A stretch of 41,752 bases of DNA, taken from the NCBI GenBank assembly GCA_017545905.1, contig JAFWXL010000063.1:1-41752 (forward strand), written 5' to 3'. This document shows, piece after piece, positions 3,162 to 41,752 of the stretch. This DNA is from Clostridia bacterium (GTDB lineage Bacteria; Bacillota; Clostridia; Christensenellales; Aristaeellaceae). The stretch's first letter is position 1. Each line of letters begins with the position of its first letter. The notes beneath the pieces were generated by a model. It saw only the letters and a list, made by a program, of their open reading frames with translations. It ran no database searches and was not told the origin of the DNA. Position numbers and translations under genes: made by a program.

Positions 3162-3182
3162 GCCCAGCATCTGCAAAACATC

Positions 3183-3214
3183 AATGCCCCGGCATTTGCC
3201 GGGGCATTTCTTAT
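3183..3214 (+). terminator. intrinsic terminator after melA
   Basis: A perfect 12-bp stem, AATGCCCCGGCA (3183-3194) with TGCCGGGGCATT (3197-3208), followed by a T-rich run. It is also near-symmetric for the minus strand. Confidence 0.85.
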
Positions 3215-3319
3215 TCCTTTTCACGCCTGCAATCAGGCGCCGCGAAGCGAAAGAAGATAGTCTGCGCAATGAAATCTCTCAGTCAGGGTCCGGGGCCTGC
3301 GGCCCCAGCGTCCTCCGCT

Positions 3320-4273: not shown

Positions 4274-4288
4274 ATGGATTTCCTCCCC

Positions 4289-4975: not shown

Positions 4976-5007
4976 TGAGAAAATCTCCTTTCGCTCATCG
5001 CAGTGTA

Positions 5008-5877
5008 TTACAGCTTCTTGAGAAAACGCGCCGCCAGCGCTGGCCACTGCGTGCATTCTTCCACCTGCAGCGACATATCCGCCGCGGAGCATGTCATGCT
5101 GTTGGCCAGGCTCAAGCCATGGCGTCCTCTGGGGAAGATATGCAGCTCGGTCAGCACGCCCGCATTCGCCAGCGCAAGGCCCATGCGCAGGCTGTTCTGC
5201 ACGGGCACGCTCTCGTCTGTGCACGTATGCCACAGGAATGTCGGCGGATAGTTTTCCGTGACCCAGCTTGTCACGTCATACTGCGCATGCTGCGCCGCAT
5301 CTTCCGTGCCGGAGAGATGGACGAACGAACCCCTGTGCGCATCCTGATCAGCAACGATCACCGGATAGCACAGCACCGCCGCATTGGGGCGCACATCCTG
5401 CGGCGAAAGCCCCAGCTCCTGCCAGATCTCCGCCCTGTGCCACAGGCCGCTCACGCTTGCCGCCAGATGGCCGCCCACCGAAAAACCCATGACCGCAATC
5501 CTGTCCGGATCGGTGTGCCACGCATCAGCATGCGCGCGCACATAGGCGATCGCCGCGGCAGCATCATGCTGGGGCAGCGGGAAGACATGGTCTCCGGATT
5601 TCTGATACCACTGCGCTGCATCGGCGTCGCGCGGCACATCGTCCGCCGCCTCGCCCACGCGATACCACAGGACAAACGCATTGAATCCCTCTGCCATAAA
5701 GCGCAGCGCAACCGGCTCCGCCTCACGCTCGCTGCAGAAAGCATATCCGCCGCCCGGGCAGATCACCACCGCAGGTCGACGCACAGCCGGCTCAATCTCG
5801 CGCGACACGCGCGGCACATATACATCCATGGGAATCTGCGCGCCGCGGGAGGACGGCACATATACGCGTTCAAACAT
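5008..5877 (-). CDS. alpha/beta-hydrolase esterase (acetyl-xylan esterase-like)
   Basis: 289 aa, cytoplasmic, with no signal peptide. The oxyanion motif is PGGGY (41-45), the nucleophile elbow is GFSVGG with Ser133, the acid is probably Asp221 in CTDESVPV, and the catalytic His is His253 in GRHGLSL. This arrangement matches the acetyl-esterase/xylanase-type branch of the alpha/beta hydrolases, which often remove acetyl groups from imported oligosaccharides. The link to sugar metabolism is supported by its place in the operon before the D-lyxose isomerase and sugar kinase. Exact substrate is unknown. Confidence 0.82.
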   Translation of the reverse strand: MFERVYVPSSRGAQIPMDVYVPRVSREIEPAVRRPAVVICPGGGYAFCSEREAEPVALRFMAEGFNAFVLWYRVGEAADDVPRDADAAQWYQKSGDHVFPLPQHDAAAAIAYVRAHADAWHTDPDRIAVMGFSVGGHLAASVSGLWHRAEIWQELGLSPQDVRPNAAVLCYPVIVADQDAHRGSFVHLSGTEDAAQHAQYDVTSWVTENYPPTFLWHTCTDESVPVQNSLRMGLALANAGVLTELHIFPRGRHGLSLANSMTCSAADMSLQVEECTQWPALAARFLKKL

Positions 5878-5899
5878 CCATCACGCCTCCGTTTCTTCG

Positions 5900-7246
5900 T
5901 CAATCCTTGTCCGTTTGCTCCAGCATCTTTTTATACGGGGCAAGCATGCCCTCGTTCATCGCATTGCCCATTTTCGCCTTGATCCTGGGCGAAGAGATCA
6001 GCGCGCCTACCAGATACATCTTGAGCATGGTCTTCCACTGCTTCTGCGGGAAGTCATACTGACCGTGCGCCTTGTAGAACTTGTGGTCCGCCTTCATCAT
6101 GCCCTGCATGATCCAGATCAGATCGCGGAATACCTTCATGCCGCCCACGCCGTAGAAATTCTGCGGCGGCACATAGCTATGCGCAATCGCATAGGCAAGC
6201 GTGCGGGCAAGGCGGTCGATCTGCGCATCGGGCTCGCGCTCATCCGTCGCCACGCCCGCCAGATAATTGCCGCCCACCTGTGCGCGCGCCTCAATGACCG
6301 CCTGCAGGTTCATCTCCGAAGAATAGCTGCCGCTGACCAGATAGCCCATCGGCATGCCCATCGTCACCGTGCGGTGACCATTGCAGAACTGGCGGTCATC
6401 GTATTTCTTGAATGCCGCGCCCATCGAGTGATCCCTGACTGTAAAGGCATAGACGATCGCCTGCGTCTTCTGGATATCGTTTCTCAGGAACTCGTCAAAC
6501 CCGTCCTTGTAGACGCACTTTCCGCTGACTGCGCAGTTGAAGCAGCCCAAACAGCCGCCGCGAAGCGGATATTCCCGGATATTCACCACGCGGGTTTTCA
6601 GCGGCAGCACAGCGCAGAACCGGTCGATCATCGCGCGCAGCTGCGTGTTGTCCTTCTCGCAGTCGGTGACGATCACCACGTCGCCCGTCTTCTCTTCTCC
6701 GGATGCATCCTTCCGGCTGACCGGCACACAGACCGGAGCCTGCTGCGCCGGCGCAGACGGCTCGTACACGTCGTTTTCCATGCCGAAAAGCACGAATTCA
6801 AAGAAATCCTTCGCCTGCCTGCGCCCCTTTTCGCTGAGCAGATCGTCCATATCGGCAGACAAGCCGCGGATGTATTTCAGACCCAGATCCTGGCAGTTGT
6901 CCTGCACGTAGCGATGCGCCGTCACATCGTAAAAATGCTTGGACGTGGTGATCTGCGTGGCAAATTTGCCCGCAAGATCCGCGCCGGAAGCCTTGAGCAG
7001 CTCGATAAACCTGTGCAGCTGGCTGGGCGCAAGGAACGTATACACCGGATAGGAAAACAGCAGCAGATCCGCTGACGCCGCAGCCGCAAGCGCAGGCGCA
7101 AAATCCTTTTCCAGAGAAGCAATGCGCTGACCGGCATGCAGCACCTCAAACGTATGCGCCGGGTAACGCTTCTGCAGATACAGAACAGTCTGCAGCGTGA
7201 CGGAGTATTCGCCCTTCGGGCTGCCGTTGATCACCAGAATATGCAT
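5900..7246 (-). CDS. tandem flavodoxin-fold NAD(P)H oxidoreductase / iron-sulfur-flavoprotein-like
   Basis: 448 aa. Two flavodoxin-like domains appear in series. The first (about residues 1-165) begins MHILVINGSPKGEYS, the NADPH-dependent FMN reductase phosphate loop. The second (about 185-330) begins VVIVTDCEKDNTQ and contains GGCLGCFNCAVSGKC, the Cys cluster of iron-sulfur flavoproteins, then KTQAIVYAFTVRDHSMGAAFKKYDDR. The C-terminal 100 residues are basic and probably helical. The second domain's phosphate loop is degenerate. A GGGAGG site precedes the ATG. It heads the operon with the esterase, isomerase and kinase (gap 22 nt). Its redox partner is not apparent. Confidence 0.75.
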   Translation of the reverse strand: MHILVINGSPKGEYSVTLQTVLYLQKRYPAHTFEVLHAGQRIASLEKDFAPALAAAASADLLLFSYPVYTFLAPSQLHRFIELLKASGADLAGKFATQITTSKHFYDVTAHRYVQDNCQDLGLKYIRGLSADMDDLLSEKGRRQAKDFFEFVLFGMENDVYEPSAPAQQAPVCVPVSRKDASGEEKTGDVVIVTDCEKDNTQLRAMIDRFCAVLPLKTRVVNIREYPLRGGCLGCFNCAVSGKCVYKDGFDEFLRNDIQKTQAIVYAFTVRDHSMGAAFKKYDDRQFCNGHRTVTMGMPMGYLVSGSYSSEMNLQAVIEARAQVGGNYLAGVATDEREPDAQIDRLARTLAYAIAHSYVPPQNFYGVGGMKVFRDLIWIMQGMMKADHKFYKAHGQYDFPQKQWKTMLKMYLVGALISSPRIKAKMGNAMNEGMLAPYKKMLEQTDKD

Positions 7247-7272
7247 CGCAATTCCTCCCTTACATGCGCAAA

Positions 7273-7302
7273 ATGCCCCGCGAAAAATACGCCGCGGGGC
7301 AT
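7273..7302 (-). terminator. terminator-like hairpin after the HAD phosphatase gene
   Basis: A 10-bp perfect stem, ATGCCCCGCG (7273-7282) with its complement (7293-7302), is followed on the minus strand by only TTTT. The next minus-strand ATG is 27 nt further and I see no promoter between. The hairpin may therefore be leaky, letting the upstream dehydratase/HAD transcript feed the sugar operon, or that operon's promoter lies inside the HAD gene. Confidence 0.65.
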
Positions 7303-7305
7303 GGA

Positions 7306-7770
7306 TTAAAGCTTGGCTATATATTCAATAAAATCGCGCACTGCCCCTCGTCCGCCTTCGCGCGGCGCAACAAAGCCGACGATCTCCCTGACCGCCTCTT
7401 CCGCATCCCGCGGGCAGCCGGTCAGACCGCAGTACTCAAGGCACTCCCAGTCATTGAGGTCATCGCCGATATAGGCGATTTCTTCGCGTGCAAAGCCGTA
7501 CTTCGCTGCGATCTGCCGCAGCAGGGGCAGCTTGTCCGCCACGCCCTGATACAGCTCCTCGATGTGCAGCTCACGGGCGCGGTTGGCCACGATCTTCGAG
7601 CTTCTGCCCGTGATGATCACCGGCACGATGCCCATGCGCGGCAGCATCTGGCCGATGCCGTGTCCATCCTTGCAGCTGAATGCCTTCATCGTCTCCCCGT
7701 CCGGTCCCATATAGATATGGCCGTCGGTCAGCGTTCCATCCACGTCCATAACCAGCATTTTGATTTTCAT
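7306..7770 (-). CDS. KdsC-family HAD phosphatase
   Basis: 154 aa, the compact cap-less HAD subclass IIIA size of KDO-8-phosphate phosphatase. Motif I is MDVDGTLTD with Asp9 and Asp11; motif II is the Thr in IITGR; then VADKLP and motif IV GDDLND. In Gram-negatives this family acts in KDO synthesis. In Gram-positive or glycan contexts relatives dephosphorylate nonulosonate phosphates or similar sugars. Here it follows a membrane NDP-sugar 4,6-dehydratase by 23 nt, which suggests a role in making an unusual surface sugar. Specific substrate is not deducible, so no gene name is given. Confidence 0.82.
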   Translation of the reverse strand: MKIKMLVMDVDGTLTDGHIYMGPDGETMKAFSCKDGHGIGQMLPRMGIVPVIITGRSSKIVANRARELHIEELYQGVADKLPLLRQIAAKYGFAREEIAYIGDDLNDWECLEYCGLTGCPRDAEEAVREIVGFVAPREGGRGAVRDFIEYIAKL

Positions 7771-7793
7771 GACGTCACTCCTGCTCCATTTCC

Positions 7794-9803
7794 TCAGACA
7801 GCGCAGTCTTCCCTGCTGTCTGCCAGCTGCATTTCATCCGCATCCACCGCGGAGGAATTGACCTCTTCCGGCGCATGATAGGTGTCCACGACACGTTTGA
7901 GCGCGCTGCGCACCTTTTCATCGTTCTGCGTGAGGATCGCCTTGCGAAGAATATCCAGCTTGGCGTTGATCTCCTCCCGGTCAAGCGGCTTGTCGCGCTC
8001 GATGAAGATCATGCTGTTGTCCGTGCGTGTGAGTTCCTCCGTCTTGATGAGCAGCTCTTCGTAGAGCTTCTCACCTGGTCGAAGACCTGTTTCGATGATG
8101 TTGATATCCCTGTAGGGCTCATAGCCGGAAAGCCGGATCATGCTCTCCGCCAGCTCCAGAATCCTGACCGGCTTGCCCATGTCCAGCACGTAGAGCTCGC
8201 CGTCACGGGCCATCGCGCCGGATTCCAGCACCAGCTGGCTTGCCTCCGGGATGGTCATGAAATAGCGGATGATGCGTCTGTCCGTCAGGGTGACCGGGCC
8301 GCCCGCGGCAATCTGGCGCTTGAACAGCGGAATCACAGATCCGTTGCTGCCCAGCACATTGCCAAAGCGCGTTGCGCTGAAGTTGGTCCTGCTGCCGGCG
8401 CGGCTGAGCACGATCATTTCACACAGGCGCTTGGTTGCGCCCATCACGTTGGTGGGGTTGACTGCCTTGTCTGTGGAGATCATCGTGAACTTCTTCACGC
8501 CGAAGCGTTCGCTGCTCGATACGATATTGAGCGTACCGAAGACATTGTTCTTGACCGCCTCGCAGCAGTTATGCTCCATCAGCGGCACATGCTTGTGCGC
8601 TGCAGCATGCAGCACGATATCCGGGCGGTAGCGCTCAAACACGCAGTCCAGCGCAGCGCCGTCACAGATGGAAACAATCTCCACGCGCACATCCAGCGTC
8701 ACGCCGTAGGCAATGCGCAGCTCCTGCTGAATATCGTAGGCGCCGTTTTCATACACATCCAGAATGATCAGCTGCTCGGGCTGCATCTTGGCGATCTGGC
8801 GGCAAAGCTCGCTGCCGATGGAACCGCCGCCGCCGGATATGAGCACGCGCTTGCCGCGGTAATAGGCATTCGTGCGTTCGTTGGTGAAATCCACCGGCTG
8901 GCGGAAGAGCAGCTCCTCGATGTCAAACTCGCGCATGCTGCGCTTTCCGTTTTCCACGGTCTGCGTCAGCGGATAGTCGTAAACCTTGAGCTTGCAGCCG
9001 GTCTGCTGGTAGAGATCGTAGAGCTCCTTCTTGCGCTCCGCCTGCATCTTGGGCAGAGCAAAGACGATCTCCTGAATCGGGAAGCTCATCAGGCGCTCCT
9101 GCGTCGCCTCATCCTCGGAGAGCACCGGTACGCCGTTGATGCTCCGGCCGATCTTCTCTTTATCGATATCGATAAAGCAGCACGGCCTGTACGCCGAGCG
9201 CGGATTGTTGGCCAGTTCCTCGGCGAACATGACGCCCACACGGCCCGCGCCGACCACGGCAATATTGATCTTGGGCGTGATGCTCTTTGCATCCGTCTCC
9301 TTGCGCAGCGGCCTGTCTTCAAAATCGGTCAGACGAATGCCTGCCGTCAGCCTGCGAAGCACGACAGCCGCCCTGCTTTCGCCGTATTCATACAGGTACT
9401 GATAGATCAGGCGGATCGTCATGGCAAAGAGCAGATTGAGCGCACAGATGCTCATCACGCGCACAAAGGATATCTTATACACATTGTAGAGTATGACGCT
9501 CTGCGCCGCATAATAGGTTACGCCCGCCAGAAAATCCATCAGGATCATCTGCATATAGGCCATCGTGCCGCCGTATCGCCAGATCTGGCGGTAAACGCCG
9601 CCGATGATGCGCCAGATGAACACGCACGCCGCGCCCAGCAGCACCTGAATGACCACCGCCTGATCCGCCAGATGCGCATCCTCGCTGGGATAGATCACCA
9701 GCATCAGTATATCCACAAACAAAAGCAGCAGCGCGTCGCACACCATCAGCTTGAGCTTGTGATGGCGGCTCTGTTCCGTCTGCCTGTTTTCACGCAAATT
9801 CAT
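7794..9803 (-). CDS. membrane-bound NDP-sugar 4,6-dehydratase/epimerase (CapD/PglF family)
   Basis: 669 aa, typical for this family. About four N-terminal membrane helices (residues 18-150) are followed by a first Rossmann domain (AVVGAGRVG) and a C-terminal extended-SDR catalytic domain (VLISGGGGSIGSELCRQ). The catalytic region STDKAVNPTNVMGATKRL has Met where soluble SDRs have Tyr, the known variation of PglF/WbpM/CapD-type dehydratases. The likely reaction is UDP-GlcNAc to the 4-keto-6-deoxy sugar for capsule, glycoprotein or cell-wall glycans. I chose the ATG at 9803, preceded by AGGAG, rather than the longer frame to 9986. A KdsC-like phosphatase follows 23 nt downstream; a lipid-linked sugar transferase lies 7 kb away. 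Confidence 0.88.
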   Translation of the reverse strand: MNLRENRQTEQSRHHKLKLMVCDALLLLFVDILMLVIYPSEDAHLADQAVVIQVLLGAACVFIWRIIGGVYRQIWRYGGTMAYMQMILMDFLAGVTYYAAQSVILYNVYKISFVRVMSICALNLLFAMTIRLIYQYLYEYGESRAAVVLRRLTAGIRLTDFEDRPLRKETDAKSITPKINIAVVGAGRVGVMFAEELANNPRSAYRPCCFIDIDKEKIGRSINGVPVLSEDEATQERLMSFPIQEIVFALPKMQAERKKELYDLYQQTGCKLKVYDYPLTQTVENGKRSMREFDIEELLFRQPVDFTNERTNAYYRGKRVLISGGGGSIGSELCRQIAKMQPEQLIILDVYENGAYDIQQELRIAYGVTLDVRVEIVSICDGAALDCVFERYRPDIVLHAAAHKHVPLMEHNCCEAVKNNVFGTLNIVSSSERFGVKKFTMISTDKAVNPTNVMGATKRLCEMIVLSRAGSRTNFSATRFGNVLGSNGSVIPLFKRQIAAGGPVTLTDRRIIRYFMTIPEASQLVLESGAMARDGELYVLDMGKPVRILELAESMIRLSGYEPYRDINIIETGLRPGEKLYEELLIKTEELTRTDNSMIFIERDKPLDREEINAKLDILRKAILTQNDEKVRSALKRVVDTYHAPEEVNSSAVDADEMQLADSREDCAV

Positions 9804-9867
9804 GATTTTCGCTCCTGTAACAGCGAATACATGCCAAACCGCATAATTTCGCATATTAAATAAAGAC

Positions 9868-9896
9868 AGGTTACCACGTTTTCCTGTCCGCGTCAA
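9868..9896 (-). promoter_or_regulatory. candidate promoter for the dehydratase/HAD operon
   Basis: On the minus strand, TTGACG (9891-9896), 17-bp spacer, then TAACCT (9868-9873). The -10 is weak, so this is a candidate only. Confidence 0.45.
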
Positions 9897-10018
9897 GATT
9901 TGCACACCAACAGAATGCAAAAGGCGCGGTTTTTGTCCCGTTTTTTCACACAAACCGGTAGGAAGGCGGCGCAATTCGTGATACAATGAAAACAGCTGTG
10001 AACATAAGGAGAGTACGC

Positions 10019-11302
10019 ATGAAGCTCAATTACAAACAGACATTTCTGGTCGGTCTGGCGTTTCTGTCCATCAGCGCTTTCTGGCAGATGTACGACAGCA
10101 TCGTTCCGCTGATTCTGCAAAACACATTCCATCTGAATGAATCGCTCATCGGCGGCATCATGGCACTTGACAATGTGCTGGCCGTATTCCTGCTGCCCAT
10201 CATCGGCACGCTCTCGGACAGGGTCAATACCCCGCTGGGCAAGCGTACGCCCTTTATTCTGGGCGGCACGGCGGCAGCCGTCGCATTCATGCTGCTGCTG
10301 CCCTATGCGGATGCAAGCAGGAATCTGGCGCTGTTTGTCATCGCCCTGTGCCTGACGCTTGTCTCCATGGCGATGTACCGCTCTCCCGCGGTTGCGCTGA
10401 TGCCCGATCTGACGCCCAAGCCGCTGCGCTCAAGCGCCAATGCGGTCATCAACCTGATGGGCGCTGTCGGCGGCGTGTGCGCGCTGGCGCTCATCCGCTT
10501 CGCCGTACCCCAGGGAGAACACCCGAGCTACGCCGGCGTATTCCTCGGCGTTGCCTTCATGATGGTTGCCGCAGTCGTGCTTCTGCTGATCACCATCCGC
10601 GAAAGGCCGCTCGCAGCACAGATTGCGCGTGAGTATCCGGATGACAATGAGGACACTGCGCCCGCTTCCGGCACAAAGACCGCGCCGCTGCCCAAGGACG
10701 TCGCGCGCAGCCTGCGCCTGATTCTCCTCTCTGTTGCGCTGTGGTTCACCGCATACAACGGCGTCACCACCGCCTTCTCCCGCTATGCGGTCACCGTCTG
10801 GAAGATGGAGGGCGGCGGCTTTGCCTCCTGCCTGATGGTCGCCACCGTTGCGGCAATCCTCAGCTATCTCCCCATCGGCATGATCGCCTCGCGCATTGGC
10901 CGCAAGAAGACGATCATGCTCGGTCTTTGCCTGATGCTCATCAGCTTCAGCGCCGTGTTTTTCTATCCGACCTACAACGTGACGGCCAACTTCTTCTTCG
11001 TGCTCATCGGCTGCGGCTGGGCTGCCGTAGGCGTGAACAGCCTGCCGATGGTCGTGGAGATGAGCCGCGGCAGCGAAATCGGCAAGTACACCGGCCTGTA
11101 CTACACGTTCTCAATGACCGCACAGATCATCACGCCGGTTCTCTCCGGCATGCTGCTGCAGTATGTTTCCTACAACACGCTCTTCCCGTATGCGATCTTC
11201 TTCACCTGCTGCGCGCTGGCAACCATGAGTCAGGTCAGACACGGCGACGCAAAGCCCGCGCCCAAAAAGCATGCCATTGAACACTACGACACGGACAACT
11301 GA
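10019..11302 (+). CDS. MFS transporter
   Basis: 427 aa with about 12 hydrophobic helices, split into two six-helix halves by a polar loop around residues 195-235. The loop between helices 2 and 3 reads GTLSDRVNTPLGKRTPF, a variant of the MFS motif A, as found in GPH/SLC45-like sugar carriers. The second half repeats it as IGMIASRIGRKKT. I chose the ATG at 10019 because AAGGAGA lies 7 nt upstream; the earlier in-frame ATG at 9986 has no ribosome site. A TACAAT near 9982 may be the -10. It is followed 11 nt later by a glycerophosphodiesterase gene, so the substrate might be a glycerophosphodiester or polyol, but this is only context. Confidence 0.8.
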   Translation: MKLNYKQTFLVGLAFLSISAFWQMYDSIVPLILQNTFHLNESLIGGIMALDNVLAVFLLPIIGTLSDRVNTPLGKRTPFILGGTAAAVAFMLLLPYADASRNLALFVIALCLTLVSMAMYRSPAVALMPDLTPKPLRSSANAVINLMGAVGGVCALALIRFAVPQGEHPSYAGVFLGVAFMMVAAVVLLLITIRERPLAAQIAREYPDDNEDTAPASGTKTAPLPKDVARSLRLILLSVALWFTAYNGVTTAFSRYAVTVWKMEGGGFASCLMVATVAAILSYLPIGMIASRIGRKKTIMLGLCLMLISFSAVFFYPTYNVTANFFFVLIGCGWAAVGVNSLPMVVEMSRGSEIGKYTGLYYTFSMTAQIITPVLSGMLLQYVSYNTLFPYAIFFTCCALATMSQVRHGDAKPAPKKHAIEHYDTDN

Positions 11303-11313
11303 GGTGACTGACC

Positions 11314-12126
11314 ATGATCATTCTTCTGATTCTGATTCTGCTTGCCATCGTCTTCCTTTTCCTCCTTGCGCCGCGCATGACGGGCAGGCCGGACGCCTCC
11401 GCCCTGATGGGCGTATACTATGCGCACCGCGGCCTGCATGACAACAAGGGCGACGCGCCGGAAAACTCTCTGGCGGCGATTAAAAACGCCGTTGCGCACG
11501 GCTACGGCATCGAATTTGACGTGCAGCTCACGCGCGACCGCTTTCCCGTGGTCTTCCACGACGAAAGCCTCCAGCGCGTATGCGGCGTGGAGGGCAATGT
11601 GCGCGATTACACCTATGAAGAGCTGCAGCAGTTTACGCTGCTCGCCTCTCAGGAGCGCATTCCGCTGTTTGCCGACGTGCTTGCCGCGGTGGACGGCAAG
11701 GTGCCGCTGATCATTGAGATCAAGATTCACGAAAATGCCGGAGAGGTCTGCGCAAAGGCCGACGAGCTGATTTCCGCCTACAAGGGCCCGTACTGCATCG
11801 AGTCGTTTGATCCGCGTGCCGTCGCATGGTACAGGAAGAATCGGCCGCAGGTCATCCGCGGTCAGCTCTCCACGTGTTTCAGCGCGCCGGACAAGCGCGA
11901 GGAATTCGTCCATATGCTTGTGCATTATCTTTTCACCAACGTGATGACCAGACCTGATTTCATCGCCTATGACCACAAGCATAAGGGAAATATCTCCCGC
12001 ACGCTGTGCAGAAAGCTCTTTGGCGCGCTGAGCGTGGCGTGGACGCTCGAGAGCCAGCAGGAGCTGGACGCGGCGAAGGACGATTTCGATCTGTTTATCT
12101 TTGAGCAGTTCATTCCCGGAAACTGA
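11314..12126 (+). CDS. glycerophosphodiester phosphodiesterase family protein
   Basis: 270 aa. One N-terminal hydrophobic segment (residues 1-19) looks like a membrane anchor or uncleaved signal, so the catalytic domain probably faces outward. The GDPD active-site pattern is complete: His38-Arg39 in AHRG, Glu50-Asn51 in PENS, Glu67 and Asp69 in IEFDVQ, and His82-Asp83 in FHDE, with a later IEIK strand. The enzyme class cleaves glycerophosphodiesters to sn-glycerol-3-phosphate and an alcohol, often in phospholipid or teichoic-acid turnover. It is translationally close to the MFS gene (11 nt) and ends at a strong hairpin. Confidence 0.87.
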   Translation: MIILLILILLAIVFLFLLAPRMTGRPDASALMGVYYAHRGLHDNKGDAPENSLAAIKNAVAHGYGIEFDVQLTRDRFPVVFHDESLQRVCGVEGNVRDYTYEELQQFTLLASQERIPLFADVLAAVDGKVPLIIEIKIHENAGEVCAKADELISAYKGPYCIESFDPRAVAWYRKNRPQVIRGQLSTCFSAPDKREEFVHMLVHYLFTNVMTRPDFIAYDHKHKGNISRTLCRKLFGALSVAWTLESQQELDAAKDDFDLFIFEQFIPGN

Positions 12127-12148
12127 AACGCCGGCACAAACCGGCGTA

Positions 12149-12190
12149 AAGGGAGTCTGAGGGATCATCCCCTCAGACTCCCTTCTTTAT
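12149..12190. terminator. bidirectional terminator between GDPD and hydF
   Basis: The arms AAGGGAGTCTGAGGG (12149-12163) and CCCTCAGACTCCCTT (12170-12184) pair, with a T-rich tail on the plus side and a shorter one on the minus side. A smaller CGCCGG/CCGGCG hairpin precedes it at about 12129-12146. It separates convergent genes and overlaps the last codons of hydF. Confidence 0.85.
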
Positions 12191-13398
12191 TTCGTACAGG
12201 CTTCAAGGAGCCGTTGATCTGCAAAGATCTCAAGACTCCTCTTCAGAATCCCATGCATATGCGCGATCGCCATGCCGTAATTGATCACCGGCACGCCCGC
12301 TTCCTTCGCCTGCAGCAACCTTGCCTTCATCATCTGCGCAGTCAGCGTGCAGCCGCCGCAATGCACAATCAGCGCATATGCTTTCAGATCCTGCGGAAAA
12401 TCGCCGCCGGAGCAGAACGCATACTCCAGCTTCCTGCCCGTATACTTCCCGATCCAGTCCGGCATCTTCACCGTGCCGATGTCGTTGCACTGCCTGTGAT
12501 GCGTGCATCCCTCGGCAATGAGCACGCGGTCGCCGTCCTTCAGCCCGGAAAGCGCCGCCGCACCGCCAAGGAGCATCTTCAGGCTTCCCTTGTAGCGCGC
12601 AAAGAGGATCGAAAACGACGTCAGCGCTATATCCGGCGGTACGTCTGCCGCCACGCGCTCAAATGCCTGCGAATCCGTGATCACCAGCTTCGGCTTCACC
12701 GAAAGCATCGCAAGCGTCTTTCTGACCTCCGTATCCTGGCAGACAACCGCCATCATGTGATGATCCAGCAGCTCGCGGATGGTCTGCTGCTGGGGCAGGA
12801 TCAGCCGTCCCTTGGGCGCAGACTCGTCCACAGGCACGACCAGAAGCGCCAGATCACCGGGCTCAAGCAGATCCGCCACGATTCTTCTTTCTTCTTTCTT
12901 CTTGCCGGCAAAGCTGCCCAGCCGCGCCTTCAGCGCCTCAATGCCCTCGCCTGTCACCGCGCTGACGTACAGCTCATTTTCCCCCGGCGCCGGACGTTGC
13001 GGGAGCAGATCGCATTTGTTCCAGCAGACCACATGGTCAAGGCCGCGCGCCTGAAATGCCGCCAGCAGCTCCCTGTCCTCCTGACGCATGCCCCATTCGC
13101 TGCCTACCACCAGCACGGCGATATTCACCTGATCGAGCATCGCCTTTGCGCGGGATACGCGCATGCTTCCCAGCTCGCCCACGTCGTCCAGACCCGGCGT
13201 ATCGATGATCACCACCGGGCCCAGCGGCAGAAGCTCCATCGCCTTTTTCACAGGATCCGTCGTCGTGCCCTTCACATCGCTGACCAGCGACAGCGCCTGA
13301 CCGGTCACAGCATTGACAAGGCTGGATTTACCTGCATTGCGCATGCCGAAAAAGCCGATATGCAGCCGTTCGGAAGACGGTGTATTGTGTAAACTCAT
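12187..13398 (-). CDS. hydF: [FeFe]-hydrogenase maturation GTPase HydF
   Basis: 403 aa. The N-terminal Era/TrmE-like GTPase has a P-loop GMRNAGKSS (18-26), switch threonines in GTTTDPV (44-50), DTPG (66-69) and NKCD. A linker and a C-terminal cluster domain follow, with CTHHRQCNDIG and HCGGC, the conserved Cys/His [4Fe-4S] ligands of HydF. HydF is the scaffold on which the 2Fe subcluster is assembled from HydE and HydG products before transfer to the hydrogenase. It is the last gene of the maturation operon, 44 nt after hydG. All key residues appear present. Confidence 0.95.
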   Translation of the reverse strand: MSLHNTPSSERLHIGFFGMRNAGKSSLVNAVTGQALSLVSDVKGTTTDPVKKAMELLPLGPVVIIDTPGLDDVGELGSMRVSRAKAMLDQVNIAVLVVGSEWGMRQEDRELLAAFQARGLDHVVCWNKCDLLPQRPAPGENELYVSAVTGEGIEALKARLGSFAGKKKEERRIVADLLEPGDLALLVVPVDESAPKGRLILPQQQTIRELLDHHMMAVVCQDTEVRKTLAMLSVKPKLVITDSQAFERVAADVPPDIALTSFSILFARYKGSLKMLLGGAAALSGLKDGDRVLIAEGCTHHRQCNDIGTVKMPDWIGKYTGRKLEYAFCSGGDFPQDLKAYALIVHCGGCTLTAQMMKARLLQAKEAGVPVINYGMAIAHMHGILKRSLEIFADQRLLEACTK

Positions 13399-36575: not shown

Positions 36576-37628
36576 ATGGCAGAAAAGAGCGCAACCATTT
36601 ACGACGTCGCCAAAGCGGCAGGCGTTTCCATCGCGACAGTGTCGCGCGTAATGTCCGGCGGATGCGTGAGCGCCGCCTCCCGCGCAAAGGTGGAAGAGGC
36701 CATGCAGGCGCTTCGCTACGTTCCCTCCCCTTCTGCGACGCACAAAACGCACAAGACCGGCACAATGCGCCTGTCCATGGTCATCTCCGAACTGACCAAT
36801 CCATATTTCGCCTCCATGGCCGCCGGCGCAGAAAAAGAGGCCCGCCGCAACGGTTATTCACTTCAGATCTACACGGTCAACCTCAAAAACGGCGACGCCA
36901 ACGCCGTCGTCGACCGGATCATCGAGCAGAAGCCCGAAGGCGCCGTGCTTGTCGGCGGCATCATCGACAATCGGGAGGCCTGCTCCAGAGAGAATCTGCT
37001 GCGCCTGCAGCGCGCCATGCCGCTTGTGACCATCGGCCCGCGCATCGACGACCTGCGCAGCATCAATATCACCTCGGATCTGTCCCTCTCCGTGCGCAAG
37101 AGCATCAGTCACCTGTATGCGCTCGGGCACAGGCGCATCGCCTTCATCGGCGGCACAAGCGACGTGCGGTCCAGCTCCATCCGTGAGCGCGCCTTTTACG
37201 AAGAAATGGAGCGGCTCGGCCTGCCCGCCGACCGCAGCCTGCACGCAGAAACTGGCTTCATTCCGCAGGACGGCGAAATCTGCGTCTCCAAGCTCTTTGC
37301 CCGTCTCGCCCCCGACGAGCGTCCCACGGCGCTCATCGCCATCAATGATCTGGTGGCGCTGGGCGCAATGCGCCAGCTGCAGCGCATGGGCCTGAGCATC
37401 CCCGGGGATATCGCAATCATCGGCTGCGACAATCAGTTCTTCACGCCCTATCTCAATCCCCCGCTGACCACGGTCGATCTGCACCCTGAGGAGCACGGAC
37501 GCAACGCCGTCTCCGAGCTGATTGCAGCCGGCGGCGGAAGCATCGTGCCCTACAGCCAGATCAGCGAATGCTCGCTGATTGTGCGCGAGAGCTGCGGTGC
37601 GGCGCTGGGCTACCGCCGCCTCGGCTGA
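36576..37628 (+). CDS. LacI/GalR-family transcriptional regulator
   Basis: 350 aa. The N-terminal helix-turn-helix with hinge (TIYDVAKAAGVSIATVSRVM, residues 7-26) is followed by a periplasmic-binding-protein-like effector domain with LSMVISELTNPYF, YALGHRRIAFIGG and ALIAINDLVALGAMRQL. It is divergent from the ABC/lyase operon, so it is the likely local repressor responding to an oligosaccharide or uronate. Repeated TGTAAGCG half-sites occur on both sides of the intergenic region. Confidence 0.92.
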   Translation: MAEKSATIYDVAKAAGVSIATVSRVMSGGCVSAASRAKVEEAMQALRYVPSPSATHKTHKTGTMRLSMVISELTNPYFASMAAGAEKEARRNGYSLQIYTVNLKNGDANAVVDRIIEQKPEGAVLVGGIIDNREACSRENLLRLQRAMPLVTIGPRIDDLRSINITSDLSLSVRKSISHLYALGHRRIAFIGGTSDVRSSSIRERAFYEEMERLGLPADRSLHAETGFIPQDGEICVSKLFARLAPDERPTALIAINDLVALGAMRQLQRMGLSIPGDIAIIGCDNQFFTPYLNPPLTTVDLHPEEHGRNAVSELIAAGGGSIVPYSQISECSLIVRESCGAALGYRRLG

Positions 37629-37653
37629 ACCGCGCCGGAAAGGAGCATGCTCC

Positions 37654-38409
37654 ATGAAGCACCGACTGATCATCACGGAAGGCCTGCCCTGCAGCGGAAA
37701 AAGCACGTTTTCAGCATATATCGCCGGCGTTCTGCGCGCAAGGGAGCCTGTCATCTTTGTAGACGAGGGTACCGGCGATCACCCGGCGGATTACGAATTG
37801 CACGCGCTCGCCCCGGCGGGCATGCTCGGCAGCGAAAGCCGGATCGTGCCGCTGTCTCAGTATTCCGGTGAGATGCTGGAGCAGCTGCTGCCCTATAAAA
37901 TCTACGATACGCTCCCATGGGAGACGGAAAAGCCGCTGATGCTTTGCAAGTGGCGGCAGTTCGCCGATAAAGCCGATGCGCAGACAGTCTATGTATTCAA
38001 CTGCGTGCTGCTGCAGAATCCCATGTGCGAAACGATGATGCGCTTTGATTTCCCGCAAAGCACATCGCTGGATTATATCGCGCAGATTGCCGGGATCATC
38101 AAACCCATGAATCCTCTGGTTGTCTATCTGAAAAACGACGACATTGCCGCCAGTATACGCAGCGCCGCAGCCCAGCGTCCCGGCTGGCTGAACGCTGTGA
38201 TCGGCTATCATGTAAATGGCGCTTACGGCAGGCGCATCGGTGCAAGCGGCTTTGACGGCTGCATCCGCTGCCTGCAGGAGCGGCAGCAGCGCGAGCTGGA
38301 TATTCTTGCCCGGCTGCCTCTGGACAGCATTGTGCTGGATAATCCGCAGCGCAGCTGGGCCGCTGCGCAGGCGCAGATACGTGCCATTCTGGCATGCGAA
38401 GCAGTATAA
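37654..38409 (+). CDS. P-loop NTPase/kinase-like protein
   Basis: 251 aa. A Walker A motif GLPCSGKST (residues 10-18) follows a short first strand (RLIITE). The rest has an acidic strand VIFVDEGTG and DDIAAS. This resembles small-molecule kinases or AAA-like single-domain NTPases, but I cannot assign a substrate. It starts 25 nt after the LacI gene with AAAGGAG upstream, so it is co-transcribed with the regulator; a role in phosphorylating a sugar or cofactor is only a guess. Confidence 0.7.
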   Translation: MKHRLIITEGLPCSGKSTFSAYIAGVLRAREPVIFVDEGTGDHPADYELHALAPAGMLGSESRIVPLSQYSGEMLEQLLPYKIYDTLPWETEKPLMLCKWRQFADKADAQTVYVFNCVLLQNPMCETMMRFDFPQSTSLDYIAQIAGIIKPMNPLVVYLKNDDIAASIRSAAAQRPGWLNAVIGYHVNGAYGRRIGASGFDGCIRCLQERQQRELDILARLPLDSIVLDNPQRSWAAAQAQIRAILACEAV

Positions 38410-38445
38410 AAGGGGATGTCAGGCCAGGCGGCCTGACATCCCCTT
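38410..38445. terminator. bidirectional terminator
   Basis: A perfect 16-bp stem, AAGGGGATGTCAGGCC (38410-38425) with its complement (38430-38445). The better T-tail (TTTT then AT) is on the minus side, so it serves chiefly the DUF4298-fusion gene. Confidence 0.85.
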
Positions 38446-38456
38446 GATGCTTTCTG

Positions 38457-39518
38457 TCAGACGTCGCGTCCGTACACCTCGATCTGGCGAAGCGACGGGA
38501 ACGCGGACGGGTTGTCGCACTTGACGAGCTTGTGCAGCTTCAGGCTGCGGATGCGGTGCCAGCCGCCCAGCGCAATCTCCTGCGGACCGTCGATTCCCTC
38601 CAGCGGGAATGTGATCTGTGCGCCGTCGCTGAGCGATACTGTTCCTTCAATCCAGTAGGCGTCATGCGGGAAATCTGCGCGAAGATAGAGCACCATTCTG
38701 TCTGTCTCCACCTCGCGGCCGAAGTCGAGCGTCAGCTCCGCATCCGTACGCGCGCCAATGCCCCAGCTGCCAAAGGGCCACGAGCCATGTCCGCAGGCAA
38801 TATGCTCGCCGTCAATGGTGTTGCGCGCGCAGAATACGCTCTCATTGCGTGTCTCCACATTGGCCGTCGCATGCGGATAGCAGGTCACATCCCCGCGCTG
38901 ATCTGCGGGATTGCGCGCCAGATTGCGGTAGCTGTTGTCCGCATCCGGCCTGATTGAACACAGATGCTTTTCACCCGAAAACGCGCCCGGGATATACACC
39001 CGCAGGTCGTCCGCCTCCAGCGGCAGCCGGAATGTGAATGCCCTTTCCGGCAGATACACGCGCGCCGGCTTCACCGCCTGATCGACCTGCACAACCGCAT
39101 ATTCGTAATCCGTTTCAAACCGGATTTCATCGCCGGGCAGGTATTCGCCGCGATAGAGCAGCTGCGCCTCTTTTTCCGCCTGCGCACAGGCGATCGCTTC
39201 GCCATGGCGGATGATCTGAATCCTCGTCATCGTCCGTGACCCCTTTCGTACATTCCCTTTTATCCTGTCGTCCATACCGGACAGCAGGTCATACAGCGCA
39301 TCCTGCGAAAGCACACCCCGCTTGAGATCTGCAGGCAGTTCGCCCCGCTCATCGCGCTCATAGTCGCACAGCCACTGTCCGCTCCGGATATAATCAGCAA
39401 GCACGCGCGCCGCATCCATCATCGCCGCATCCACCTGCCTGCCATCTCGCAGCGCGGCACAAAGAGCATCAAAATGCCGCTCCATCTCCCGGATTCTATC
39501 ATCCGCCGCCATATCCAT
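38457..39518 (-). CDS. DUF4298 protein fused to a carbohydrate-binding-like domain
   Basis: 353 aa. Residues 1-96 match DUF4298: RIREMERHFDALCAAL, then IRSGQWLCDYERDERGELP and LKRGVLSQDALYDLL. From about residue 97 (MTRIQIIRHGEAIACAQAE, Met codon at 39230) the sequence changes to a beta-rich region with GSWPFGSWGIGARTDAEL and a jelly-roll-like end, usually labelled carbohydrate-binding. An AAAGGGG ribosome site lies inside the frame just before that Met, so two proteins may be made, or a stop codon has been lost. The preferred start is 39518 after GGGGGAC. Functions of both parts are unknown. Confidence 0.65.
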   Translation of the reverse strand: MDMAADDRIREMERHFDALCAALRDGRQVDAAMMDAARVLADYIRSGQWLCDYERDERGELPADLKRGVLSQDALYDLLSGMDDRIKGNVRKGSRTMTRIQIIRHGEAIACAQAEKEAQLLYRGEYLPGDEIRFETDYEYAVVQVDQAVKPARVYLPERAFTFRLPLEADDLRVYIPGAFSGEKHLCSIRPDADNSYRNLARNPADQRGDVTCYPHATANVETRNESVFCARNTIDGEHIACGHGSWPFGSWGIGARTDAELTLDFGREVETDRMVLYLRADFPHDAYWIEGTVSLSDGAQITFPLEGIDGPQEIALGGWHRIRSLKLHKLVKCDNPSAFPSLRQIEVYGRDV

Positions 39519-39555
39519 CACGTCCCCCGGTTTGCGAAACCATTTCTCTTTTTCC

Positions 39556-39584
39556 AGTATAACACAGAAAAGGATTGCTGCAAA
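39556..39584 (-). promoter_or_regulatory. promoter of the DUF4298-fusion gene
   Basis: Minus strand: TTTGCA (39579-39584), 17-bp spacer, TATACT (39556-39561). The -35 lies inside the terminator stem of the preceding gene. Confidence 0.6.
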
Positions 39585-39597
39585 CAAACAGCAATCC
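39572..39597 (-). terminator. terminator after the recombinase/SpoVT frame
   Basis: Minus strand: GGATTGCTG with CAGCAATCC (39589-39597 and 39572-39580), loop of eight, then TTTT. It is probably the native spoVT terminator. Confidence 0.8.
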
Positions 39598-39673
39598 CTT
39601 TTATCATGCAGTTTTTTCGCAGCCGCATTCTCCATCGCAGCGTACCTGCACAGCGTTTGCGCCAGTACGCCGG

Positions 39674-40138
39674 TCACTGCTCCATCTGCCTGCCCACGAT
39701 ACTGGCCGTCGTCTCGGCGACCTTGAGTTCGGTATCGCCCATCCGCGCCGCAGGCTCGCGCGAGAGCAGCACGACCGCGCCGATCGACTCGCCGTCCGCG
39801 ATGATCGGGCAGATCACCTGCGCGGTATATGTCTGTGCGTCCTCCTCATTGGTCACCGGCACAAGGCGCGTGCCGCTGCCGCGATTGGCCGTCACCACCT
39901 GTCGCGACTGAATTGCCTGCTCCAGATCCCGGCTGATCGGCTTTTCCCAGAGCTCTTTACGGGAAACACCGCTGGCCGAGACGATCATGTCCTTATCCGT
40001 GATGCAGGCAATATGCCCCAGCGACCGGAAAAGCGATTCGGTGTAATCCTTTGCAAAGTTTGAAATTTCCCCGATCGGCGAATACTTCTTGAGGATGACT
40101 TCGCCGTCTTTGTCCGTGTAAATTTCAAGCGGGTCGCC
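39674..40138 (-). pseudogene. spoVT: 3' fragment of spoVT (stage V sporulation protein T)
   Basis: 154 codons equal to SpoVT from GDPLEI to the C-terminal RQMEQ. The first ~30 codons, which form most of the AbrB-like DNA-binding hairpin (normally ending in RRTLRIREGD-like sequence), are missing and replaced by recombinase coding sequence. All of the GAF-like domain (NFAKDYTESLFRSLGHIACI, VICPIIADGESIGAVV) is intact, with a native terminator after it, so the fragment is not decaying. Call it an interrupted gene if the 5' part lies beyond the recombinase element. Confidence 0.85.
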
Positions 40139-41752
40139 GCTGCTGACACTGTGGATAGAGCGTTCGTCTGCTCTATGATTCCGGACTTTTCGCACAAGAG
40201 CCGTCTCGCCGCAGGCGGCTCTTTCTATTTCTTCACTCTGCGATACATGCAATAGGGCATCAATGTCGCTTCGCAGCCGGATGTCGATGTGATCGTCATA
40301 GACGTCGATACGCTCGACGATGAACTCGATATCCTGCTTCTTGAGCTTAGGCTTGTTCAGGATGTCATCGAAGATGTCCAGCGCCGTCTTGGCAATCCGG
40401 TTCATCCTGATCACGTTGTTCCTGTGATCCTCCATCAGCTCAAGCTGACTTTCCAGTCCCCGGATCTTCGCATAGCACTCCGCTTCCAGCGCGTCATACG
40501 TTTCGTTGATCATCTCCTCCTGCTCCGGTTTTCGCATCAGTTCAGCAATCTTCTGCCTCGTCAGCGTCTTGAGCTGATTCTTCGCCGCTTCGATCTGTCT
40601 GCGCAGCATGTCCCGCGTCTGTTCGCCCTCGCTGATCCTCTCCTTCTCGTCACGGATGGACGCCTCCAGCGCCTTGATCATGTGTGCGCTGTTCTGTTTC
40701 ACTTTTCGGATATACATCTTGAGGATGCTGTCCAGAAAGTCCACGCGCGTGTGATGCGACGTACATCCCTTGCGCCCGCGTTTATGGTAAGTACCGCAGG
40801 TGTATGCAGGATCGAGGTCTTTACGGCTCATGGAGAACATCGGGCTGCCGCAGTCACCGCAAAACAGCAAGCCCGTGTACGGCGTTTCATACTTACGGAT
40901 GCCATTGTAATTGTTTCGCATTCGCCGCTTCATCTGCTCCTGCACATAGGCAAACGTCGGGTAGTCAATGATCGGCTCATGATGGTTTTCAAAGACAAGC
41001 TGCTTCGATTCGTCGATCCGCTCATCCTTGCCGTTGATGCCCTTGCGCCTGTATTTACCCTGACGCAGCGTGCCGATATAGAAGTCGTTGCTCAGAATGC
41101 CTTGGATCGTCACATTCGACCAGGCATCCTTACCCCGCCTTATAATCGGTTCGCCCATTGCCTCTTTTCTTTCGGCCTCTGCGCGGCGGGGCGTCGGGAT
41201 GTTGTTCTCGGTCAGGTAATTGGCGATTCGCTTGTATCCCCAGCCATCCATATACAGCTGATAAATCTTTCGGACAACTTCAGCCGCCACAGGATCAATC
41301 TCATACGTCATCATCTTGTAGCTCTTCATGACATAACCGTATGGCACAGCGCAAATCCACCGTCCGTCCTGCTGCCGCCTTGAGATGACGCTCTTAACCT
41401 TCTGCGAGGAATCCGTGACCGGCATCTCGTTGAGCAGAAAGCGCAGACGGATGTTTGTCCAATCATCGTGCGTCGGATAGTCGATGCTGTCCCCAATCGC
41501 CACGATGCGCACGCCCGCATCCCGCAGATCCTCCAGCTCCACCAAACCGCGAGAATTGCGGCGTGAGAATCGGCTCAAGTCCTTGATGATCAGGATATCG
41601 TACTGACCCGTCATCAGATAGGGCCGCATGCGCTGGTAGTCCTCGCGCTGCTCAAACGTGTAGCCCGAACGGTCACGATCCACGAAGAACGTCAGCTCGC
41701 TGTCCGGGAAGTTCCGCTGCACATAGTCTGAAATGATGTCCTTCTGATTCTC
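39674..41752 (-). CDS. large serine recombinase fused in frame to the SpoVT C-terminal region (5' end outside window)
   Basis: The open frame enters from the right edge (reads ENQKDIISDYV before 41722), so the catalytic Ser region is outside. Visible are the resolvase core DLSRFSRRNSRGLVEL, the recombinase domain PYGYVMKS to NVTIQGILSNDFYIGTLRQG, a zinc ribbon FCGDCGSPMF with CGTYHKRGRKGC, and a long coiled coil (EKERISEGEQTRDML onward). The frame then runs with no stop into GDPLEIYTDKDGEVILKKYS, which matches SpoVT from about residue 31. The last 154 codons are SpoVT C-terminal region (part of the AbrB-like domain and the GAF-like domain). Large serine recombinases integrate and excise elements at short att sites; a junction here would put the element to the right. 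Confidence 0.88.
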   Translation of the reverse strand, partial: ENQKDIISDYVQRNFPDSELTFFVDRDRSGYTFEQREDYQRMRPYLMTGQYDILIIKDLSRFSRRNSRGLVELEDLRDAGVRIVAIGDSIDYPTHDDWTNIRLRFLLNEMPVTDSSQKVKSVISRRQQDGRWICAVPYGYVMKSYKMMTYEIDPVAAEVVRKIYQLYMDGWGYKRIANYLTENNIPTPRRAEAERKEAMGEPIIRRGKDAWSNVTIQGILSNDFYIGTLRQGKYRRKGINGKDERIDESKQLVFENHHEPIIDYPTFAYVQEQMKRRMRNNYNGIRKYETPYTGLLFCGDCGSPMFSMSRKDLDPAYTCGTYHKRGRKGCTSHHTRVDFLDSILKMYIRKVKQNSAHMIKALEASIRDEKERISEGEQTRDMLRRQIEAAKNQLKTLTRQKIAELMRKPEQEEMINETYDALEAECYAKIRGLESQLELMEDHRNNVIRMNRIAKTALDIFDDILNKPKLKKQDIEFIVERIDVYDDHIDIRLRSDIDALLHVSQSEEIERAACGETALVRKVRNHRADERSIHSVSSGDPLEIYTDKDGEVILKKYSPIGEISNFAKDYTESLFRSLGHIACITDKDMIVSASGVSRKELWEKPISRDLEQAIQSRQVVTANRGSGTRLVPVTNEEDAQTYTAQVICPIIADGESIGAVVLLSREPAARMGDTELKVAETTASIVGRQMEQ
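40136..40223. other. candidate recombination junction (att site) in spoVT
   Basis: SpoVT homology begins at the GGC codon at 40136-40138. On the recombinase side lie two perfect inverted repeats: ATAGAGC/GCTCTAT (40155-40161, 40170-40176) and AAGAGCCG/CGGCTCTT (40196-40203, 40216-40223). Serine-integrase att half-sites are inverted around a short core; which repeat, if any, is the binding arm cannot be decided here. Confidence 0.5.

What the first reader, a model, noticed from the sequence alone, without database searches (positions are those of the whole stretch)
39674..41752. Serine recombinase fused in frame with the 3' part of spoVT: likely sporulation-gene-interrupting element
Seen: one uninterrupted minus-strand frame goes from recombinase to a SpoVT sequence starting at GDPLEIY and ending RQMEQ, with only the N-terminal ~30 codons of SpoVT missing and a terminator after it. 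Known: in several spore formers, skin-like elements split sporulation genes (sigK, and SPbeta in spsM) and a serine recombinase excises them in the mother cell. Inference: this is the end of such an element in spoVT, with the recombinase reading frame crossing the att site. Excision would restore spoVT and change the recombinase's own tail. I know of no described spoVT-splitting element.
Basis: partly seen in the sequence, partly recalled or inferred. Interest (0 to 1): 0.9.

Follow-up and report, generated by a model that had tools for sequence, protein, structure and literature searches.

The report
Removable element splits forespore gene spoVT
In this bacterium and in many other Clostridia, a mobile DNA element sits inside the sporulation gene spoVT and cuts it in two; it likely cuts itself out during sporulation to make the gene whole, and would be unusual in doing so in the cell that becomes the spore rather than in the cell that dies.

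Summary
The window is contig C75 of a draft genome; its minus-strand frame is a large serine recombinase running in frame into the last 154 codons of spoVT. The missing 5' piece (30 codons plus GDP) is on contig C20 of the same genome, ending at the same 10-bp core GGCGACCCGC. Joined, the halves give a complete SpoVT; a same-genus genome has the intact gene with both flanks contiguous. It is no one-off: 76 of 80 recombinase relatives kept from a genome scan run into SpoVT at the same place, and in 19 of 40 genomes searched the 5' piece is on the same contig, 7-78 kb away. Recombinase and SpoVT parts assort independently: mobile elements, varied cargo. New here: (1) the recombinase frame crosses the att site, so integration swaps a native tail for SpoVT's C-terminal domain, and natural proteins with the native (circle) tail exist; (2) an unannotated small gene lies upstream of the recombinase in 68 of 80 loci; (3) sigma-F-type promoter motifs are enriched before it. 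Likely mechanism: forespore-programmed excision restoring spoVT. Excision during sporulation is untested.

The parts
40139..41752 (-). Large serine recombinase, element-encoded; its first ~30 residues, with the expected catalytic serine, lie beyond the contig end. P0002, a 99% identical database protein, is complete at 722 aa.
40139..40153 (-). Element-side arm of attR; in the joined circle junction it forms an inverted repeat with the arm on contig C20.
40129..40138 (-). Shared core GGCGACCCGC (also at C20:19392-19383); predicted crossover dinucleotide GA at 40135-40134.
39674..40138 (-). 3' part of spoVT: 154 codons and stop, in frame with the recombinase (SpoVT_C, GAF-like domain).
39568..39602 (-). 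Hairpin with T run downstream of spoVT (terminator-like, by inspection).
37001..39673 (-). Chromosomal flank downstream of spoVT; parts of it match same-genus genome G019 (L031) next to an intact spoVT and the C20 upstream flank.

Best explanation
A mobile element that carries its own serine recombinase is inserted in spoVT at the core GGC-GA-CCC and is predicted to be excised in the forespore, where a likely sigma-F-driven unit of a small companion protein plus the recombinase would rejoin the two halves so that sigma-G can express whole SpoVT. Shown: the split, the shared core, the complete gene on joining, the empty site in a relative, the mobility of the family, and the existence in databases of circle-junction forms. 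Inferred: that excision is timed by sporulation, that it happens in the forespore, and that the companion is the directionality factor. Because attP lies inside the recombinase gene, in phase with spoVT, integration replaces a native C-terminal tail (roughly 25-60 aa) by SpoVT's C-terminal domain; I infer that this tail swap helps set direction (native tail for integration from the circle, SpoVT_C-tailed enzyme for excision). Since forespore DNA is inherited, lasting carriage would need re-integration after germination, for which the maintained native tail is the expected tool (inferred).
For: Split gene in the own genome: TIGR02851 finds only C75 (profile 26-180) and C20 (1-34); joined it reads stop-free over 184 aa. 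Empty site: of the 11 same-genus intact loci fetched, G019 carries C20 upstream flank, intact spoVT and C75 downstream flank in one contig; neither element side hits any of the 11. Family: 76 of 80 loci fused at the same site; 5' piece on the same contig and strand in 19 of 40 genomes; restored SpoVT open in 23 of 23 elements analysed, circle-form recombinase open in 23 of 23. attP symmetry peaks at one centre, GGcG|Acc (76.5% of positions; at most 38% at the other 19 centres tried), agreeing with the GA that all differing attL/attR cores share. Circle forms: end of contig G180:C12 and natural proteins P0143 and P0145. Assembly fork: in G041 the intact-spoVT contig C6 and the element contig C115 start at the same base, share exactly 141 bases and part inside the core. 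Promoters: sigma-F pattern in 22 of 56 non-redundant companion upstreams against 1 of 407 upstreams of other ORFs and 0.22 per shuffle; outside the set used for it a weight matrix gave p<0.05 in 6 of 18 against 1 of 66 controls. SigG-like sites upstream of 12 of 38 spoVT 5' pieces, 0.2 expected. Host: a sigG-like match in 20 of 20 genomes tested (over the curated cut-off in 5) and spoIVA in 17 of 20, own genome included. spoVT is sigF/sigG-dependent and needed for heat-resistant spores in C. difficile (PMC3789822, passages).
Against: No sporulating culture or read data: timing and cell type are not shown. The fixed promoter pattern was relaxed after I had looked at the sequences and found 0 of 15 non-redundant (0 of 23) further loci; only the matrix test held up, and 3 of its 18 loci (L246, L251, L252; 3 of the 6 positives) had been in the set counted, though not in the matrix. 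A sigE-like (mother-cell) pattern was enriched too: 5 of 55 against 0.9 expected. The companion is not always beside the recombinase: 57 of 80 within 250 bp, and among 28 later loci the recombinase motif lay within the ~3 kb fetched in 12. The companion was not found in the own genome, whose contig stops inside the recombinase. The attP pattern found nothing in 391 class genomes or in viral contigs, though it matches only 10 of 23 reconstructed attPs. G041 could be a strain mixture; the G180 circle junction differs by one base from its own attL tail, so it could be a tandem or variant copy. The own genome's sigG match is below the curated cut-off (411 against 457 bits). Several hosts (Ruminococcus) are not known to me as ready spore formers.
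Confidence: 0.67

Rival explanations
1. An ordinary integrative island that uses spoVT as a conserved attB. It inactivates spoVT while resident, excises rarely and without developmental timing, and the in-frame fusion is a by-product of attP overlapping the recombinase gene.
For: Strong horizontal movement: 190 of 1970 protein pairs with recombinases at least 90% identical have SpoVT parts under 60% identical. Varied cargo such as type I restriction-modification and CRISPR-Cas. Many close relatives have an intact gene.
Against: Sigma-F-type promoter enrichment before the companion gene, with sigma-A-type sites scarce (1 of 56 against 61 of 407 controls); 5' fragments keep sigG-like promoters and show few non-synonymous changes (not datable); sporulation genes persist in carriers.
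Confidence: 0.2
2. Mother-cell excision as in sigK/skin: spoVT would be rejoined in the mother cell only and the spore would keep the element.
For: The developmentally excised elements listed in PMC10747680 (sigK, spsM, spoVFB, gerE, yabG; passages) sit in genes that I recall as mother-cell genes; a sigE-like pattern was also enriched before the companion, 5 of 55 against 0.9 expected.
Against: spoVT is a forespore regulator in C. difficile; the forespore-type pattern was commoner (13 of 55 against 3.1; 22 of 56 against 0.22) and sigK-like sites were not enriched (1 of 55 against 1.4).
Confidence: 0.09
3. A domesticated fusion gene: recombinase-SpoVT_C is itself the functional, fixed regulator and no removable element remains.
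For: The fusion is very common in databases.
Against: The 5' half with its start and conserved sequence persists beyond the element; intact and split species alternate within one genus; recombinase and SpoVT parts are exchanged.
Confidence: 0.02
4. Assembly chimera of the metagenome bin.
For: The window is a draft contig and the two halves lie on different contigs.
Against: Same structure in a 3-contig genome (G053), in named isolate records (L065, L070, L072, L080, L083, L131, L136) and in many independent database proteins.
Confidence: 0.01

Closest known systems
skin element in sigK (Bacillus subtilis; Clostridioides difficile CD1231 recombinase with CD1234 RDF)
   Same: A serine-recombinase element splits a sporulation regulator gene and its removal restores the gene; in C. 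difficile an RDF gene under sporulation sigma control gives direction and keeps excision in the mother cell (PMC5025042, passages).
   Different: Different gene, a forespore gene in C. difficile; recombinase frame fused to the target's 3' part; small companion gene of no Pfam or NCBIfam family; sigF-type motifs rather than sigE/SpoIIID control (motif only). The companion was not compared with CD1234.
gin in gerE (B. cereus ATCC10987)
   Same: Non-phage island splitting a small sporulation regulator gene with a 9-bp overlap (PMC5595907, abstract and passages).
   Different: Three recombinases and no tail swap in the passages seen; here one recombinase in the fused role and a family seen across Clostridia.
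yin in yabG (Clostridium botulinum V73)
   Same: Prophage-like element splitting a sporulation gene, integrated and circular forms coexisting (PMC10747680, abstract and passages).
   Different: Described by its authors as unique; yabG is sigK-controlled.
SPbeta in spsM (SprA integrase, SprB RDF)
   Same: Precise excision restores a sporulation gene (PMC4191935, search listing); the recombinase shows remote similarity to the solved integrase YokA.
   Different: SPbeta is an active phage; the top-25 PHROG list for 85 cargo ORFs names no structural genes.

Membership tests
Sporulation-gene-intervening elements (skin/gin/yin/vfbin type) | Element splits a sporulation gene at a short shared core | tested here: met
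Sporulation-gene-intervening elements (skin/gin/yin/vfbin type) | Joining the flanks restores a complete reading frame | tested here: met
   23 of 23 elements analysed; own genome
Sporulation-gene-intervening elements (skin/gin/yin/vfbin type) | Element-encoded serine recombinase at one end | tested here: met
Sporulation-gene-intervening elements (skin/gin/yin/vfbin type) | Excision shown to occur during sporulation | not testable with these tools
   No reads or cultures; only circle-form sequences were seen
Sporulation-gene-intervening elements (skin/gin/yin/vfbin type) | Recombinase or directionality factor under a sporulation sigma factor | tested here: inconclusive
   sigF-type motif enriched, a sigE-like one too, but 0 of 15 by fixed pattern in further loci; motif only, no mapped start
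Sporulation-gene-intervening elements (skin/gin/yin/vfbin type) | Acts in the terminal mother cell | tested here: inconclusive
   Target gene is a forespore gene in C. difficile (PMC3789822); not measured in these hosts
Large serine recombinases | Resolvase, Recombinase and zinc-ribbon domains with palindromic att arms | tested here: met
   the N-terminus is off the window but present in P0002
Recombination directionality factor (the companion gene) | Binds the integrase and reverses its direction | not testable with these tools
   Only position and conservation; fold search gave no match at E 0.001 or better
Prophage | Phage structural genes in the element | tested here: inconclusive
   Pfam and PHROG scans of 85 ORFs from 12 elements name none among the 25 commonest families; rarer families and other elements are not shown

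The most novel reading that the evidence does not exclude
A reversible germline DNA switch: in each sporulation cycle sigma-F turns on companion and recombinase in the forespore, the element leaves the chromosome that the spore inherits, sigma-G expresses the rejoined spoVT, the spore carries the circle, and after germination the circle-form recombinase with its native tail puts the element back. The enzyme reads its own state of integration through its swapped C-terminus, borrowing the host's SpoVT sensor domain as an excision-specific part.
Probability: 0.32. Interest if true: 0.95.

Novelty: new variant of a known kind. Interest (0 to 1): 0.88.

Why it matters
The sporulation switches of this kind that I know of act in the mother cell, where losing DNA costs nothing. 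A switch in a forespore gene would act on inherited DNA and must either be lost or be reversed in every spore; I found no such case in the papers that I could search. The family spans several groups of Clostridia and some members carry defence systems, so it may tie island carriage to sporulation in uncultured lineages, and it explains database proteins named 'stage V sporulation T C-terminal domain-containing protein' that are recombinases. It also offers a natural case of an integrase whose C-terminus would change with its integration state, and a large set of matched recombinase, att-site and companion triples.

Tried and rejected
Looking for excised junctions by an attP DNA pattern: 0 in viral contigs and 0 of 391 class genomes; the pattern fits only 10 of 23 reconstructed attPs, so this says little. 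A test of selection after insertion by Ka/Ks: most comparisons are saturated and the elements move between hosts, so conservation of the 5' fragment cannot be dated; only the native tail in four close pairs (Ka/Ks about 0.06-0.16) is informative. Contig breaks at the core as evidence of mixed forms: G175 was set aside because it has repeated 5' fragments; G008 only starts at the core; G041 is the clean case, but a search of its bin found no close recombinase of this family. Structure of the companion: model pLDDT 84, no PDB match at E 0.001 or better. G076 looked split but its junction is of another kind and was left out of the 23. G179 failed my 5' pattern and was left out of the att counts. 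G041 has only its 5' side, and G058 and G008 only their 3' side, so none is among the 23. Cargo scan: of 184 ORFs listed (flanks and likely spurious frames included) I gave 85 from 12 elements to and left out G053, G176, G178 and G181, whose cargo by eye is not defence, so the defence share is overstated for the family; the control used 60 of 66 listed flank ORFs. Papers: no spoVT-splitting element in eight searches of the held library; most subscription papers are not held. The sigma-factor consensus strings and the serine-recombinase catalytic motif are recalled; the text of PMC3789822 supports only the extra G (sigF) and extra A (sigG) beside the -10.
Full report
What is in the window. The window is the whole of contig C75 of a draft genome (G000, 2.53 Mb, 115 contigs, 77.8% complete). 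The minus-strand frame 41752-39674 is open over 692 codons, runs off the contig end, and reads Resolvase, Recombinase, zinc ribbon, SpoVT_C. A 99% identical complete database protein, P0002, is 722 aa, so about 30 residues are missing here, including the region where the catalytic serine is expected (recalled motif; YCRIS in P0002).

The other half. The SpoVT family model finds exactly two places in the genome: C75 (profile 26-180) and C20:19378-19479 (profile 1-34). The C20 frame starts at 19482, reads VRATGIVRRIDELGRVVIPKEIRRTLRIREGDP and continues with 29 element-encoded residues to a stop. Both ends share GGCGACCCGC (C75:40138-40129; C20:19392-19383). Joined at the core they give a stop-free 184-residue SpoVT. 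A sigma-G-like promoter (GCATA, 17 bases, CATACTA; consensus recalled) lies upstream of the 5' piece at C20:19637-19609, read by eye.

Empty site. Of the 11 same-genus loci with intact spoVT that were fetched, G019 has the C20 upstream flank, intact spoVT and the C75 downstream flank on one contig; three others (G009, G011, G027) show part of the upstream flank only and seven show neither flank; neither element side matches any of the 11. In 150 relatives, 113 have a SpoVT match and 46 are over the cut-off; 8 have the 3' part in a frame longer than 600 codons, and 7 of these 8 also have a separate 1-34/35 piece (G058 is the exception). Intact and split species occur in the same genus.

A wide family. 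A scan of one genome per species with recombinase-only sequences gave 373 relatives, of which the best 80 loci were kept. 76 of 80 run in frame into SpoVT at the same place; the other four are L073, L085, L126 and L140. Hosts by record title include Ruminococcus flavefaciens, R. bicirculans, Anaerotruncus massiliensis, Pseudoflavonifractor, Eubacterium, Lachnospiraceae and Candidatus Borkfalkia. In 40 of those genomes (40 of the 80 loci were given to the call) SpoVT was found in 40, over the cut-off in 0; only G157 (locus L073, not fused) has a full-length profile match. In 19 of the 40 the 5' piece is on the same contig and strand; in G159 it is on the same contig, opposite strand. Sixteen of the 23 elements analysed have both ends on one contig, 6.8 to 77.8 kb apart. 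Of the 240 proteins listed in two database searches (120 each, from 8000 scored each) plus the window's own, 232 carry a long SpoVT part at one position, 3 are fused but truncated, 2 have a native tail, 2 are inverted and 2 have other tails. An evenly drawn sample of the class has the companion gene (below) in 7 of 391 genomes, and the window's family in 21 of 308.

Mobility and cargo. Recombinase and SpoVT parts assort independently: of 1970 protein pairs with recombinases at least 90% identical, 190 have SpoVT parts under 60% identical; 433 of 17272 pairs with recombinases at most 65% identical have SpoVT parts at least 95% identical (overall rank correlation 0.43). Cargo differs between elements. 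85 ORFs that I picked from 12 elements matched 440 PADLOC models at 1e-10, with type I specificity subunits in 6 of 85; Pfam lists HsdM and HsdR N-terminal domains, MobA/VirD2-like relaxase and tyrosine integrase in 3 each. 60 ORFs from the downstream flanks of 11 loci matched 11 models. Four further elements (G053, G176, G178, G181) carry other genes by inspection and were not scanned, so defence genes are frequent, not universal. Element G164 holds type I-C-like cas genes and a repeat array, by inspection. PHROGs name integrases, helicases and methyltransferases but no structural genes among the 25 commonest families.

The att site. For 23 elements (16 with both ends on one contig, 7 over two contigs) the joined circle junction is an inverted repeat about one centre, GGcG|Acc: 76.5% of positions symmetric against at most 38% at the other 19 centres tried; attB is 36% there, hardly above its own background. 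Where attL and attR cores differ (G150, G156, G160, G178, G181), the stretch common to all is GA. Two independent lines thus give the same predicted crossover dinucleotide.

The tail swap. The core is read in the same phase in the recombinase and in spoVT. In the circle the recombinase continues into a native tail, open in 23 of 23, with a recurring pattern of the type LLITLT..WE.YCFAML.LAKR.G. Beyond the att arm, four close pairs show Ka/Ks of about 0.06-0.16; more distant pairs are saturated and less constrained (pooled ratio 0.43). The predicted circle form is found in nature: the end of contig G180:C12 reads recombinase, circle core and native tail, with one base different from the tail at its own attL, and two database proteins of 607 aa, P0143 and P0145, have the recombinase followed by GDP and such a tail in place of SpoVT_C. 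A third arrangement, the recombinase facing the reverse complement of the spoVT 5' piece (inverted element), is seen in L085/G164 and in P0176 and P0179. In G041 the intact-spoVT contig C6 and the element contig C115 start at the same base, are identical over exactly 141 bases and part inside the core, as expected of an assembly fork when both forms are in one sample (a strain mixture is possible).

Companion gene. All-against-all comparison of ORFs from 43 element sequences found one recurrent small gene (39 of 43; 59-109 aa). A profile built from those 39 hits 70 of 80 loci, many of which supplied it; in 68 it lies upstream of the recombinase on the same strand, in 57 within 250 bp. Of the ten misses four start within 235 bases of the locus end. 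In 28 further loci fetched by this gene the recombinase motif lies within the roughly 3 kb held in 12, so it is often further away. It has no Pfam or NCBIfam family. By position and size it is a candidate directionality factor (inferred). It is present in G003, same genus as the window, but was not found in the window's genome, where the contig ends inside the recombinase.

Promoters. Upstream of companion starts a sigma-F-type pattern (G[ACT][AT]TA, 14-16 bases, GGNNANANT) is in 22 of 56 non-redundant regions (26 of 72 in all), against 1 of 407 upstreams of other ORFs and 0.22 per shuffle. The stricter recalled form is in 9 of 56 against 1 of 407. Sigma-A-like sites are in 1 of 56 against 61 of 407. 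I widened the pattern after viewing the sequences, so I tried further loci: the fixed pattern found 0 of 15 non-redundant, but a weight matrix from the first set gave p<0.05 in 6 of 18, against 1 of 66 control upstreams (rank test p 1.1e-5); three of those 18, all positive, had been among the regions counted though not in the matrix. First-set loci without the fixed pattern gave 16 of 34. An earlier scan with other recalled patterns gave, for 55 companion upstreams, a joint sigF/G type 13 (3.1 expected), sigE type 5 (0.9), sigK type 1 (1.4) and sigA type 1 (0.3); the gap just before the recombinase had none in 66. SigG-like sites stand upstream of 12 of 38 spoVT 5' pieces with 0.2 expected. 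In C. difficile spoVT depends on sigF and sigG, and its mutant makes no heat-resistant spores (PMC3789822, passages); sigF promoters there carry an extra G before the -10, which fits the motif found.

Host. The own genome has a sigG-like best match (411 bits, below the 457 cut-off) and spoIVA over its cut-off; in 20 genomes chosen from split and intact ones, sigG-like matches are in 20 (5 over the cut-off) and spoIVA in 17.

Reading. The split, the mobility and the att geometry are shown by sequence. Forespore-timed excision is the best account of a sigF-type unit that would rejoin a sigF/sigG-controlled gene, but it is inferred. The nearest relatives in kind are skin, gin, yin and SPbeta (PMC5025042, PMC5595907, PMC10747680, abstracts or passages; PMC4191935, search listing); in C. 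difficile skin the sigE/SpoIIID-controlled RDF keeps excision in the mother cell, the opposite arrangement to the one proposed here. No paper on a spoVT-splitting element was found; the large recombinase survey PMC10083194 does not mention spoVT in its main text (term search only).

Noticed in passing
L191 (G164) and proteins P0176, P0179: Elements lying inverted between the two spoVT halves: the recombinase reads into the antisense of the spoVT 5' piece.
   Followed up: partly
L188 (G161), L194 (G168), L199 (G177), L210/L211 (G166): Two or more spoVT 5' fragments in one genome, some in tandem a few kb apart, some diverged (RIRMGDP), suggesting stacked elements or captured copies.
   Followed up: no
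L191 (G164), about 1700-12350: Type I-C-like CRISPR-Cas genes and repeat array carried inside a spoVT element (by eye).
   Followed up: partly
L010 (C20:1-19380): Element-side cargo of the window's genome includes LuxR-type regulators, a histidine-kinase-like gene, a leucine-rich-repeat-like protein and zinc-ribbon proteins; names by eye only.
   Followed up: no
L144, L145, L146: Three IMG/VR 'viral' contigs carry this recombinase-SpoVT fusion and may be islands rather than viruses.
   Followed up: no
L073 / L217 (G157): A related recombinase with companion gene and a different tail, in a genome whose spoVT is intact: possibly another target or a decayed copy.
   Followed up: partly
L061/L052 (G076): spoVT split with a different junction and no recombinase fused to the 3' part.
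   Followed up: no
   Followed up: no
P0002 (kin of the window's recombinase): Sub-threshold NCBIfam similarity of the recombinase to XisF (fdxN element excision) and CcrB.
   Followed up: no
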